Shown here: positions 7,554-62,892 of the stretch, piece after piece | Position numbering within the stretch: the first letter of the stretch is position 1 | Layout: every line of letters begins with the position of its first letter | DNA from: Tricholoma matsutake | Lineage: Eukaryota; Basidiomycota; Agaricomycetes; Agaricales; Tricholomataceae | Assembly: GCA_026075535.2 (NCBI GenBank) | Contig: AP026540.1 | Location: forward strand, 2,294,001-2,358,000 | DNA: 64,000 nucleotides | Direction of reading: 5' to 3' | The notes under the pieces: generated by a model | Databases searched by the model: none | What the model was told of the DNA's origin: nothing | The model's input: only the letters and a program-made list of their open reading frames with translations | Position numbers and translations under genes: made by a program

Positions 7554-7653
7554 TTATGAGAGCGTTTGACAGTGTCCACCGAACCCATATCATTCAGTAC
7601 ACTGTATGCATTTGATAGACCATATTATTTGGTACATTGTAGCTTACCTATCT
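7554..7653 (+). repeat. Terminal inverted repeat of KDZ copy 1
   Basis: About 100 bp from TTATGAGAGCG to TTACCTATC, matching both TIRs of copy 2 (15781-15880 and 27672-27773) with scattered substitutions. Confidence 0.8.
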
Positions 7654-8165
7654 GCATGGATCAGAGCAAAGACATCCATTTCCCAGCGACTTATGCATGA
7701 ACAAGATGAGGAAAAAGAGGCCAGCAAGCAGACCCTGGACAACCTACTGCCACTGGAATACCAGAAATACAGACAGGTATTTGAAAAAGCCACATCTGAG
7801 CGATTCCTGGAATTGAAGCCATGGGATCATGTGATCAACTTGAAGAAAGGCTTTGTACCAAAGGATTGCAAAGTCTACCCATTGACACCGAAAGAACAAG
7901 AGAAACTCAATGAGTTTCTAGATGAAAACCTGGAAAAAGGATACATCCGACCATCGAAATCACCCATGGCATCCCCATTCTTCTTCGTGTCGAAGAAGGA
8001 CTCTGATGCTCTATGACCTTGCCAAGACTATCGCTATCTGAACAAAGGAATGATCTGGAACAACTACCCCACCCCCTGCCACTGATTGGAGACCTCTTGG
8101 ACAAGCTGAAGGGAGCAAGATTTTTCACAAAGCTCGATATTTGATGGGGATATCATAACATATGG
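7651..8165 (+). pseudogene. Ty3-A pol: linker and N-terminal reverse transcriptase
   Basis: The reading frame AWIRAKTSISQRL continues from the gag-protease fragment and runs into the usual pre-RT and RT start of fungal Ty3 elements (PWDHVINLKKGF, DCKVYPLTPKEQEKLNEF, SPMASPFFFVSKKD). Damage: TGA instead of an arginine codon at about 8014, a one-base frameshift near the C-run at 8070, and TGA at about 8142 in the motif KLDI-x-WGYHN. The solo LTR interrupts it at 8165; the sequence resumes at 9597 with RIKEGDEWKAAF. Confidence 0.85.
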
Positions 8166-9592
8166 TGATAGGTCCACCTTGTTGTTCAAGCTTGGAAAAC
8201 ACATCTATGATCATTGTCAAAGCTCTATGAGCCCATACGAACCCCTCCAAAGCTCTATAAACCTCTATGAACCTCTACAAAGTCATGAGAATGCTTCAAA
8301 ATTCTTTGTGACACCTTGAAATTCTTCATATGCCTTCGGCCACCATAATACAATTTCCCCAATCTTTGTACAGCTCAAGACATACACCTGGAACATCGTC
8401 GATGAGTTCTGAACCAGTATCAAGCAATATCGCAGTGATATCGACCTTCGAACAAGTCCAAAATTTCCTCAACCAACTTTGAAAATCATCAAACATTGAA
8501 AATCATCAAACATTGAAAATCAACATCGGACACTAAATCGCTATCTGAATAATCATCGCACACATGCCAGACGTATCCCCTACCATTGTCGAACAATATC
8601 ACACCAATTTCAGGCCACGAATGAAGTCTGAAGAAACTTCAAAAATCTTCGAAAAACATTGAACCTCGAAAAACATCTTCGGACACAATATCTCCTATTC
8701 AAACGATCTTAGGACCCATGCTGGACACATGGGACACTATCTCGAGTATATCAAACACATTTCGACTGCATGTGCACGCATACAATCTGCTCGAAGCAGT
8801 TTCCGATGTTTTATTCAATTCATAACAAGGACAGTCTGCTTTTAGCTATTCTTTCTTATTATTTCTTCATCATGTGTTATATTCACTCTTTCTAGGCTCG
8901 CTTTATTGTTCTGATATACTTATATTGTCTTTTGCCTCAAGTTTTCCACATGTTTGCCTCATGTTCTCTAACCTTTTTAGCTACTTTCTTTATTTTATAT
9001 AAAAAGATGTACTAGATACAAAGAAAAACAAGAGAGTTGTTGTCTTCCTCCCAGATCACAGTAATTTGAGAGTTCATTTTAGTCTTATTCAGTCCAAAGT
9101 TTGGTGTTTTATGCTAAATTTCCTTGAAATTCCTTGAAATTCCTCACATTACACTATTTTCGCTCCCATTTCCCTCAATTCGCCTTTGCTTTGGTTCTAC
9201 TACTCGTCTAGTCCCCCGATCTTGCATCCAAACATATTTGCGCACTCGAAATTCCTTGAGACTTCTTTGAAAAAAGCTCGAAAAATATTGCAACACCTTG
9301 AAAATCATCGCAACATCTCACAAACCATCACAACATCTCGAAAATTATCGCAATGTCTCGAAAGTCATCGCAATATCTTGCAAATCATCGCAATGTCTCG
9401 AAAATCATTGCAAGTCCTCAAAACACATTCTTTTAGCTTCGAACTGCTTCAACAAGCAGTTGTTTTATGACTATTTGACAGTCAGTCTGACAGGTGACAT
9501 CTAGAGGGCCTCACATCCTTCCTCTGACTTGTGTTATACCATCCAAAGCCTTTTTGTGGGTTTTGTTTGGGTTTCCGGGTTGAGCATCATCA
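8166..9592 (+). mobile_element. Solo LTR inserted in Ty3-A reverse transcriptase
   Basis: A 1427-bp insertion begins TGATAGG and ends CATCATCA. It is flanked by atgg (8162-8165) and acgg (9593-9596), a 4-bp target duplication differing by one CpG transition; removing it restores the RT frame (YHN-IRIKEGDEW). It has no coding potential. An AT-rich TTATATAAAAAG box at about 8994 could be the promoter TATA of an LTR. The strand assignment is by that box only. Confidence 0.6.
9240..9430 (+). repeat. Minisatellite inside the solo LTR
   Basis: About eight degenerate units of roughly 20 bp, consensus near CGAAAATCATCGCAACATCT. Similar short runs occur around 8470-8520. The open frames through this stretch are repeat artefacts. 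Confidence 0.6.
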
Positions 9593-9596
9593 ACGG

Positions 9597-11655
9597 ATAA
9601 AGGAAGGAGATGAGTGGAAGGCAGCATTCAAGACTAACCGAGGGCTATTTGAGCCAACGGTGATGTTCTTTGGGCTGTGCAACTCACTGGCAACATTCCA
9701 AGTGATGATGAACAATCTCTTCTGAGACATGATAGACAAAGGATGGCTCATCATCTATATGGACGACATCCTGATCTTTTTGAAGATGGAAGAAGAACAC
9801 CAGATAATGACTGAAAGGGTCCTCAAATGATTATGACAATGCAATCTCTACCTGAAAATATAGAAGTGCAAGTTCAATGTGCAAGAAGTAGACTTCTTGG
9901 GCATGATCATCAGGCCCAACAAACTCGCAATGGACAGCACGAAACTGGCTGGGATCAAGGACTGGCCCACACCAAGGACAGTGAAGGATGTAAGATCCTT
10001 CCTAGGATTCGGAAACTTCTATTGAAGATTCATCAGACACTTTGCAGATCTGGCCAGACCACTGAATGATTTGATGAAGAAGAACCAGAAATTCGAATGG
10101 ATGAATGACTGCCAGCAGTCGTTTGATGCACTAAAGGGGAAGTTCAACAAAGCTCCAGTACTGCTGATGCCAGACAAAACAAAACAATTTGTGGTGGAAT
10201 CTGACGCCTTGAAGTTTGCAACAGGTGTGGTACTCAGACAACAGGACACCAATGGAGACTGGCTTCCATGCGGTTACATCTCACATTCTTTCAACAAAGC
10301 GGAAAGAAATTATGAGATATACGACAGGGAACTACTGGGAGTAATCTGAGCACTAGAGACATGGAGACACTACCTACAGGGGATGCCATTCCCTGTGACG
10401 GTACTATCCAATCACAAGAGCCTGATGTACTTCCATCAGGCACAGAAACTGAACCGACGACAAGCTAGATGGAGCATCTATCTGTCACAATTTGACCTGA
10501 AGCTACAACATGTACCAGGATCACAGATGGTACAGTCTGACACCCTATCAAGGAGAGCAGATCATATAGCTGAAGACCATCCTCACCAACGAGATGCCAG
10601 CAGACCATTTGAGCTGGTAACAACAGATTTCATTACAGACCTGCCCATAATAAATGGATTTGACTCAATCATGGTCATGGTAGACCATGGTCTTATGAAG
10701 GGGGTAATTTTTATCCCTTGCATGAAGATGATCGATGCACTTGGCACTGCAGACCTTTACCTGCACCATGTATACACAAGATTTGGACTCCCCAGAAGAA
10801 TCATCTCAGACAGAGACCCTCAATTTGCATCCAAACTATTCTGAGAACTCGGATGACTGCTCAGAATCAAGTGATCCATGAGCACCGCCTATCACCCCCA
10901 GACCGACAGAGAAATGGAGTGAGTAAACCAAGAGCTAGAGGTTTACCTCTGCATGTTCTGTTTGAACAAACCAGAAGATTGGGAGCATTATCTCCCAACA
11001 GCAGAATTTGTGCATAACCAGAAGACGCACTCCGCAGTAAAACATTCGCCATTTTACTTGATGATGGGATATCAACCATGTGCTATCCCCACCCCTTACA
11101 AAAAGACGAATGTGCCAGCTGCTGAACAGAGAATCCAAGGACTTCTCTCTGCGAGAAGGGAAGCTCTTGCCGCACACAAACTGGCCAGACAGACTATGGC
11201 CACCCAAACAAAAGAGTAATATGAACCGTTCAAGGTTGGAGAACAAGTATGGCTTGACTCCAAGAACCTGAAGATTGGCCCCCCAACAAGAAAATTGGTG
11301 CCAAAATGAGAAGGGCCCTTCATGATTGAAGATGCCCTGTCAAGAACAACATACCGACTGAAACTGCCACCAAGATGGAAAATCCACCCAGTCTTCCATG
11401 CAGCTTTACTCACATGATACCATGAGAACGACACTCATGGGCAAAACTTCCTGACTCCACCACCCAACCTCGTGGAAGGAGAAAATGAATATGAAGTGGA
11501 AGCAATCATCACACACAAGAAGCATGGCGAGACACGCTGTTACCTCATGAAATGGGTCGACTACCCGACATCTGAAAACACATGGGAACCCAAATTGAAC
11601 TTGAAGAATGCCCCCAAGCCCCTGATGGCATATAAGAAGAGGCACCACCTCTGAC
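9597..11655 (+). pseudogene. Ty3-A pol: RT, RNase H, integrase, chromodomain
   Basis: The RT block resumes with EGDEWKAAF. The catalytic motif YMDDILIF is intact at about 9757. RNase H follows (about 10080-10560; ALKFATGVVLRQ, NYEIYDRELLGVI). Integrase core: first D in TTDFITDLP (about 10622), second D in ISDRDPQF (about 10804), third E after HPQTD (about 10915). The integrase HHCC zinc-binding region is missing: the frame passes from the RNase H tail (DTLSRRADHIAED) to the core within about 20 codons. The chromodomain (about 11485-11640; YLMKWVDYP, ENTWEP) ends the frame. Stops are almost all TGA at expected arginines (for example 9724, 9829, 10348, 10842, 11308), plus one TAA at 11217. The copy is dead. 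Confidence 0.85.
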
Positions 11656-62053: not shown

Positions 62054-62055
62054 TA

Positions 62056-62067
62056 AGATCTAAACTA
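62056..62067 (+). other. Self-primer binding site of Ty3-A
   Basis: AGATCTAAACTA, two bases after the LTR, exactly complementary over 12 nt to the LTR sequence at 61815-61826. This matches the self-priming layout known from Tf1/sushi chromoviruses, where the RNA 5' end primes minus-strand synthesis. Confidence 0.65.
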
Positions 62068-62369
62068 TCTGCTAGCCCACCTACCTAGGTGTAGGCAATA
62101 CGTCTCGAAACACACGACAACAACCTGGGTCTAGACAAACCCCAGACTGACCACCAAGAGAAGCAGAACCACAGCCAGGTTCATCTTGGTACCGATACAA
62201 TGGAAGACTAGTTCATTACTCAACCCCAGCACAGCATTGGTTCTACAGATCAACTGAAAGACAAAGAGGAGATTTCCACACCGACAAAGACTTCAAATGA
62301 CCACACACACCCCCACCTGAAACATCCACCCACTTCCTAACAGACAAAATCGACGACCTCTATAACGAG

Positions 62370-62892
62370 ATGTCTGAACCCGCTGCAACCACACCAATAA
62401 TGTCCATAGAGGACATTTGAATCCAATCACCCACAGACTTCTCAGGAGAGCGGACCAAAACTGCCAAGTTCCTGCAGGAGATAGACCTGTACTTGTGAAT
62501 CAATGACCAGGTCTATGACATGAATGACAAGAAGATCATCTTCATGCTGTCCTTCATGAATGGAGGGACAGCAGCTGCCTGGGCGCAGGCATTTGTCAAC
62601 CAACACCAATCCGAGGGACTCGGAGAATACGCAGACTTCAGACAGAAGGTTCTAGAAGCCTTCTCACCAATTGATGACACCGGAACGGCAAAGACAGAGA
62701 TTAAGAATCTCAAACAAGGTTCAGGGATCCTCAAAGAATATGTGGCGAGTTTCTGCATCCTGAAAGACAGGACAGGAATCATGGAGGATGCAGCCATGAT
62801 CGAGTACTTTATGGATGGACTGCACCCCGAATTACTGAAGAGGGTACACACAATGGAGACAGTACCCAATACTCTCGAAGGCTGGATAAAGG
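62370..62892 (+). pseudogene. Ty3-A gag, N-terminal part
   Basis: Starts MSEPAATTPIMSIEDI at 62370. TGA codons at about 62418 and 62496 (DLYL-x-INDQ) interrupt it; from 62520 it is open: LSFMNGGTAAAWAQAFVNQH, GLGEYADFRQKVLEAFSPID, YFMDGLHPELLKRVHTME, ending NTLEGWIKA at the X-4 insertion. This is the standard retrotransposon gag capsid region. The C-terminal part is at 29482-29131 on the minus strand. Confidence 0.8.

What the first reader, a model, noticed from the sequence alone, without database searches (positions are those of the whole stretch)
7651..62892. One Ty3 retrotransposon lies in three scattered, re-oriented pieces that join base-to-base
LTR-gagN (61357-62892, plus), gagC-protease (29482-27774, minus) and pol-LTR (7651-13245, plus) join in frame: LEGWIKA to SIKAALKYEG across GATAAAGG, and LLLKSAWI to AWIRAKTS across TGCATGGATCA. 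The outer LTRs are flanked by the same gatgg. Joins at three independent duplications make coincidence unlikely. Reassembled length without nested insertions is about 7.4 kb, normal for a chromovirus.
Basis: seen in the sequence. Interest (0 to 1): 0.9.

Follow-up and report, generated by a model that had tools for sequence, protein, structure and literature searches.

The report
Retrotransposon split by two transposon-mediated inversions
A single jumping element in a fungal chromosome, probably that of a mushroom, lies in three scattered pieces, most likely because two other transposons that had landed inside it recombined with nearby inverted copies and flipped stretches of the chromosome; the process is known, but the record left here is unusually complete.

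Summary
LTR-gagN (61357-62892, +), gagC-protease (29482-27774, -) and pol-LTR (7655-13245, +) are parts of one degenerate Ty3 chromovirus. Other genome copies run unbroken across the joins: 19 of 19 loci examined at gagN/gagC, 18 of 19 at gagC/pol. The overlaps are target duplications, GATAAAGG and CATGGAT. The LTRs share GATGG, and their joined flanks are unbroken in 11 paralogous places.

A hAT-like element (E) had inserted in gag, a Kyakuja-type KDZ transposon (F) at the start of pol. Each now faces an inverted copy, and each pair carries a near-identical tract (4 differences in 2.83 kb; 9 in 0.69 kb). Two inversions by crossover between inverted copies (cores 8.1 and 28.9 kb) explain the layout. 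For F this is strongly supported: the pair's outer flanks, 25 kb apart here, adjoin at one other genomic place with a 7-bp target site, as predicted beforehand. For E the same prediction failed: the partner's flanks do not match, so an extra event, perhaps a deletion, is needed.

This is the exchanged-duplication signature known from Galileo in Drosophila: a new member of a known kind.

The parts
61357..62892 (+). Ty3 piece 1: 5' LTR (61357-62053) and first part of gag; ends with GATAAAGG (62885-62892) at the left end of an E copy
   Evidence: Sequence; Retrotrans_gag 9.6e-13 and Ty3_capsid; continuous with piece 2 in 19 of 19 other loci
27774..29482 (-). Ty3 piece 2: rest of gag and protease; begins with GATAAAGG (29475-29482), ends with CATGGAT (27774-27780)
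   Evidence: RVP_2 1.3e-6
7655..13245 (+). Ty3 piece 3: pol, chromodomain, 3' LTR (12632-13245); begins with CATGGAT (7655-7661)
   Evidence: RT_RNaseH 1.4e-9; Chromo 3.2e-14; continuous with piece 2 in 18 of 19 other loci
8159..9584 (.). About 1.43-kb insert inside pol, absent at this place from the other copies aligned
   Evidence: 17 of 19 loci match both sides of it; in 5 of these (L025, L027, L030, L032, L033) the two matches meet with a 5-base overlap
1..7654 (+). Right part of KDZ transposon copy F' (whole copy about -9578 to 7654), ending CCTATCTG beside CATGGAT
   Evidence: CxC2 1.6e-17 and KDZ 2.2e-31; ends
15780..27773 (-). KDZ transposon copy F, inverted relative to F'; left end at 27773 beside CATGGAT, right end at 15780 beside AGGGGAG (15773-15779)
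4112..6942 (+). Near-identical tract shared with 15880-18710: 4 differences in 2,831 bases
   Evidence: the adjoining 2.5 kb differs at 108 positions
15880..18710 (-). Inverted partner of the tract 4112-6942
13246..15779 (.). W1: right-hand flank of the Ty3, beginning with GATGG; its far end once adjoined the DNA left of -9578
29483..33987 (-). hAT-like copy E: right end at 29483 beside GATAAAGG, left end at 33987 beside GATTTTTT
62893..64000 (+). Second E copy, inverted (whole copy 62893-64865): left end beside GATAAAGG, right end beside TGGTTTTG
62975..63664 (+). Near-identical tract shared with 33235-33924: 9 differences in 690 bases
33235..33924 (-). Inverted partner of the tract 62975-63664
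33988..61356 (.). W2: left-hand flank of the Ty3 with further retroelements, ending with GATGG (61352-61356); inverted together with piece 1 in this reading
   Evidence: that it was inverted is inferred

Best explanation
One Ty3 chromovirus inserted into a repeated gene-like sequence (duplication GATGG). A hAT-like element E later inserted in its gag (GATAAAGG) and a Kyakuja-type KDZ transposon F at the start of its pol (CATGGAT). Other copies of E and F lay nearby in inverted orientation. Homologous crossover inside each inverted pair flipped the DNA between them: one inversion between the F copies (core 7655-15779) and one between the E copies (core 33988-62892). Each inversion parted two adjoining Ty3 pieces. 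Shown: one element; the nested insertions; the exchanged duplications and empty partner site of the F pair; the exchanged GATAAAGG of the E pair; a near-identical tract in both pairs. Inferred: crossover as the act itself, the order of the two inversions, and one further deletion or third copy on the E side.
For: Continuity of the pieces in other copies with exact overlaps. Joined Ty3 flanks unbroken in 11 paralogous places. Six of the eight transposon ends sit beside matching duplications, each split between the two copies of a pair: CATGGAT twice, AGGGAAG/AGGGGAG (6 of 7 bases alike), GATAAAGG twice. Prediction written before the search: the outer flanks of the F pair should adjoin elsewhere; one place, C4:9946474-9947058, does so over 584 of 584 query positions at 88%, with AGGGGAG at the joint and a 7-base overlap of the flanks. 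Near-identical tracts inside both pairs.
Against: The matching prediction for the E pair failed: its outer flanks (GATTTTTT at 33988, TGGTTTTG at 64866) are not alike and no match crosses their join; the missing half-junctions were not found. The near-identical tracts could come from later gene conversion, and their limits were chosen after seeing the differences, so the p-values are optimistic. The LTR pair leads the next LTR by a small margin (93.5% against 92.8% and 92.6%). No reads and no unrearranged allele were seen.
Confidence: 0.87

Rival explanations
1. Assembly error: inverted repeats made the assembler flip segments or mix the two nuclei of a dikaryon.
For: Large inverted repeats are a known cause of such errors (general knowledge). 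If this is the matsutake assembly, the sample was dikaryotic with 1.05% heterozygosity (PMC10211490).
Against: The near-identical tracts are 2.8 and 0.7 kb, the HiFi read N50 in that paper is 10-11 kb, and the sequence around the tracts differs by several percent, so reads should cross them. No N in the 84 kb.
Confidence: 0.06
2. Aberrant transposition: ends of two different copies were cut together and reinserted, making inversions directly.
For: Known for maize (PMC8225341, search listing only) and discussed in the Galileo paper (PMC2775673, passages). The two E ends at 33988 and 64866 lack matching duplications, so this is not excluded for the E side.
Against: All four F ends and both gag-side E ends keep duplications from ordinary insertions, and the F partner site is found empty; new insertion sites would be expected at cut ends.
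Confidence: 0.05
3. Three unrelated fragments of different Ty3 copies that happen to abut transposons at matching bases.
For: The family is large (first-look candidates: 737 for gagN; 451 for gagC).
Against: E and F would each have to hit the same base in two copies, and the LTR duplications and joined outer flanks would have to agree too. The junctions are unique apart from one 3-mismatch look-alike.
Confidence: 0.01
4. A Ty3 already carrying E and F was duplicated as a segment, and different parts were lost from each copy.
For: The repeats around the locus show that duplication happens here.
Against: In 84 kb each internal piece is present once, and the junctions have no second exact match in the genome.
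Confidence: 0.01

Closest known systems
Galileo-generated inversions of Drosophila buzzatii (PMC2775673; abstract and passages seen)
   Same: Two DNA transposon copies in opposite orientation at the two breakpoints, with exchanged target duplications; single target copies at the empty sites. Nested hAT insertions are reported there too.
   Different: There whole inversions were compared with uninverted chromosomes and chimeric copies were shown. Here only one arrangement is held, the segments are 8 and 29 kb, two transposon families took part, and one retrotransposon carries both breaks.
Inversions of Atlantic cod with hAT-derived MITEs at breakpoints (PMC12368964; abstract and outline seen)
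   Same: hAT-type elements proposed to drive inversions by ectopic recombination.
   Different: Tandem MITE arrays and very large inversions; here a single inverted pair with an exchanged duplication.
Kyakuja transposons of Agaricomycotina (PMC12730594; passages seen)
   Same: F has a KDZ transposase with CxC2 region, CA..TG ends and 7-bp duplications.
   Different: The Laccaria families are said to have no terminal inverted repeats; F has ends alike at 84 of 100 bases. A TET/JBP gene was not found in the few F reading frames scanned.
marY1, the gypsy element of Tricholoma matsutake (6047 bp, 426-bp LTRs; PMC10211490 and PMC10627285, passages)
   Same: Abundant gypsy LTR retrotransposon, if the genome is matsutake.
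   Different: LTRs here are 614 and 697 bp and the element about 7.4 kb, so by size another family; the sequences were not compared.

Membership tests
Ty3/gypsy chromovirus | gag, protease, reverse transcriptase/RNase H and integrase in that order, with a chromodomain at the end | tested here: inconclusive
   Gag, protease, RNase H-like and chromodomain found by Pfam, in that order along the pieces. The RT piece could not be scanned because of stop codons and no integrase family passed 0.001; both are recognised by eye only (recalled motifs).
Ty3/gypsy chromovirus | Two LTRs beginning TG and ending CA, with a short target duplication | tested here: met
   TGTTACAATT..CTTAACA, GATGG on both sides
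Kyakuja (KDZ superfamily) | KDZ transposase domain | tested here: met
   PF18758 2.2e-31 and PF18803 1.6e-17 in the copy F'; Kyakuja versus Dileera or Zisupton not tested by tree
Kyakuja (KDZ superfamily) | 7-bp duplication and CA..TG ends | tested here: met
   CACATAGG..CCTATCTG on both copies; CATGGAT; AGGGGAG at the empty site; feature from PMC12730594
Kyakuja (KDZ superfamily) | No terminal inverted repeats (as stated for two Laccaria families) | tested here: not met
   84 of 100 terminal bases alike; whether this defines the family is unclear
hAT (element E) | 8-bp target duplication and short inverted ends | tested here: met
   GATAAAGG exact; ends CAGTAATTTACACTCC and GAGTACATTACACTCC read inward
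hAT (element E) | hAT transposase | tested here: inconclusive
   One reading frame in E (32506-33096) gave no Pfam match; E is likely non-autonomous and is called hAT-like only
Inversion by ectopic recombination (F pair) | Inverted copies with exchanged duplications and an empty partner site | tested here: met
Inversion by ectopic recombination (E pair) | Both duplications exchanged between the two copies | tested here: not met
   GATAAAGG is exchanged, but the partner's flanks do not match and no empty site was found
Inversion by ectopic recombination (both pairs) | Chimeric copies, shown by comparison with further copies | not tested
   Only identity between the two members of each pair was measured
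Inversion by ectopic recombination (both pairs) | Uninverted allele in a relative | not testable with these tools
   No relatives of this genome are held

The most novel reading that the evidence does not exclude
The KDZ pair, near-identical over 2.8 kb inside more diverged arms, is a still-exchanging pair of inverted repeats: the 8-kb core between them may flip repeatedly and may stand in opposite orientation in the two nuclei of the dikaryon or among strains, making this a naturally switching chromosome segment.
Probability: 0.12. Interest if true: 0.6.

Novelty: new member of a known kind. Interest (0 to 1): 0.4.

Why it matters
In genomes made mostly of transposons, rearrangements are hard to prove. 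Here one broken retrotransposon serves as a witness: three target duplications and empty sites elsewhere in the genome let two rearrangements be read to the base from a single assembly. Multiple inversions are reported between T. matsutake and T. bakamatsutake (PMC10627285, passages); the passages I saw give no breakpoint mechanism. Split retrotransposons of this kind could be screened for across the genome to supply one.

Tried and rejected
Prediction that failed: the outer flanks of the E pair should adjoin elsewhere, as the F flanks do. They do not (41 matches listed, 40 of 1465 candidates scored, none crossing the join). Pattern searches for the missing half-junctions gave 0 matches and 2 matches at 3 mismatches, which I judged chance and did not follow. 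A query with the far side of the 33988 target met six places, one of them the query's own source, and in all six the match runs across the target point, so none starts beside an E end. I infer a deletion between direct E copies, or a third copy; unproven.

Rejected: coincidence of unrelated fragments; a duplicated Ty3 already carrying the inserts; an 11-bp duplication at pol. Dating in years was not attempted: K2P between the LTRs is 0.069, but 32 of 40 differences are transitions and CpG is depleted in the window, so a clock is unsafe. Rfam: no match at gathering score. In searches of the open-access library, which returned capped lists, I saw no report of Kyakuja-made or hAT-made inversions in matsutake; that does not show absence from print.
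Full report
What was checked. The window is bases 2294001-2358000 of contig 3 of a 161,040,721-base assembly in 13 contigs. Size and number of sequences match the telomere-to-telomere genome of the matsutake mushroom, 13 sequences and 161.0 Mb (PMC10211490; first part of the text and passages seen). I fetched 10 kb on either side; positions outside the window are given as negative numbers or numbers over 64000.

One element. Piece 1 (61357-62892, +) holds an LTR and the first part of gag; piece 2 (29482-27774, -) the rest of gag and protease; piece 3 (7655-13245, +) pol, chromodomain and LTR. For gagN, 40 of 737 first-look candidates were scored and 20 cut out as loci, one of them the window itself. 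In the 19 others pieces 1 and 2 are continuous, with an overlap of exactly 8 bases, GATAAAGG. For gagC, 40 of 451 candidates were scored and 20 loci cut out, again one the window itself. In 18 of the 19 others pieces 2 and 3 are continuous with a 9-base overlap, TGCATGGAT; in L025 the start of pol was not matched. TG ends both F copies on the right, so the duplication is CATGGAT. The two LTRs are flanked by GATGG and are each other's nearest relatives among 37 LTRs compared (93.5%; the next, for either, is L015 at 92.8% and 92.6%, a small margin); 4 of 39 candidate loci did not pass the length and coverage filter. Joining the two outer flanks gives a sequence that 11 places carry unbroken across the joint (39 matches, 24 candidates); six of these were looked at base by base, and one reading frame runs through the joint. 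The three pieces therefore belong to one insertion.

What sits in the breaks. At pol the break is filled by a KDZ transposon, 15780-27773 on the minus strand, with ends CACATAGG..CCTATCTG. A second copy, inverted, runs from about -9578 to 7654 and holds the CxC2 and KDZ domains. CA..TG ends and 7-bp duplications are those published for Kyakuja (PMC12730594, passages). At gag the break is filled by a smaller element with an 8-bp duplication and short inverted ends, hAT-like, with no Pfam match in the one reading frame tested. Its copies lie at 29483-33987 and, inverted, at 62893-64865.

The F pair. [quoted passage not shown] AGGGAAG and AGGGGAG lie beside the remaining two ends. If the DNA between the copies was inverted by an exchange within them, the DNA left of -9578 must once have adjoined the DNA at 15779. 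This was written down before the search. A joined query found it at C4:9946474-9947058: 584 of 584 positions in one alignment at 88%. Of the four other places listed, two are the query's own halves and two are end fragments of about 40 bases. The C4 site reads AGGGGAG at the joint, and the two flanks overlap there by 7 bases.

The E pair. GATAAAGG lies beside one end of each copy, so the two ends of the gag insertion are now 33 kb apart on different copies. The second prediction failed: the remaining flanks (GATTTTTT at 33988, TGGTTTTG at 64866) do not match, and no match crosses their join. Paralogs show what should follow on the 33988 side (GATTCTTTGTGGGACACC and a variant); that continuation was not found beside an E end. 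The partner was thus itself a hybrid of two E copies, most simply after a deletion between direct repeats, before or after the inversion. That step is inferred, and a transposition-type event on this side is not excluded.

Where the exchange took place. Along the F pair, 4112-6942 and 15880-18710 differ at 4 of 2,831 positions, the neighbouring 2.5 kb at 108 of 2,500, the last outside window overlapping the tract slightly (Fisher p about 5e-31). Along the E pair 690 bases differ at 9 positions, the other alignable parts at 62 of about 1,001 (p about 2e-7). The limits of the tracts were set after seeing the differences, so the p-values overstate the case. Crossover with conversion would leave such tracts; later conversion alone could too.

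Undoing the two inversions on paper gives one order: upstream DNA, F partner, W1 reversed, the Ty3 reversed with F and E inside, W2 reversed, E partner, downstream DNA. Apart from the E partner's own flanks, every observed flank falls into place.

Comparison. Inverted copies with exchanged duplications are the signature by which Galileo was shown to make inversions in Drosophila by ectopic recombination; the same paper describes aberrant transposition as the alternative (PMC2775673, passages). hAT-derived MITEs are proposed as agents of inversions in cod (PMC12368964, abstract). The mechanism is not new. I saw no like case of one retrotransposon recording two inversions in searches, whose lists were capped.

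Limits. No reads, no second haplotype and no sister genome could be searched; the tool holds no relatives of this genome. Copy counts are lower bounds set by the tool.

Noticed in passing
12266-12533: About seven copies of a 27-bp tandem repeat just before the 3' LTR of the Ty3.
   Followed up: no
window as a whole: CpG is depleted (observed/expected 0.27) with CpA 1.41 and TpG 1.44, as after deamination of methylated cytosines; the 421-bp flank upstream of F' stands at 1.15. Some TGA stops in pol look like former CGA codons (by eye).
   Followed up: partly
31360-33303 and 63580-63924: E copies contain repeated units of about 90 bp, and the copy at 29483-33987 has an extra internal stretch of about 1.6 kb lacking in the other.
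   Followed up: no
48170-53654: A LINE-like element: endonuclease (Exo_endo_phos_2, 3e-10) and reverse transcriptase (RVT_1, 7.7e-13).
   Followed up: no
38114-46065: Another gag-pol retroelement region, mostly minus strand, with Ty3 capsid-like gag between repeats that may be its LTRs.
   Followed up: no
G000:C2:9288951-9289677: A paralog of the Ty3 target is interrupted by about 355 bp at nearly the same spot as the Ty3 insertion, with a 4-base overlap of the two matches.
   Followed up: no
6943-7554: About 610 bp near the right end of F' have no counterpart in F at 15879/15880.
   Followed up: no
64866-64932 (L002:866-932): The DNA beside the second E copy resembles the end of yet another repeat, also seen in L090 and at about -5955 to -5763.
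   Followed up: partly
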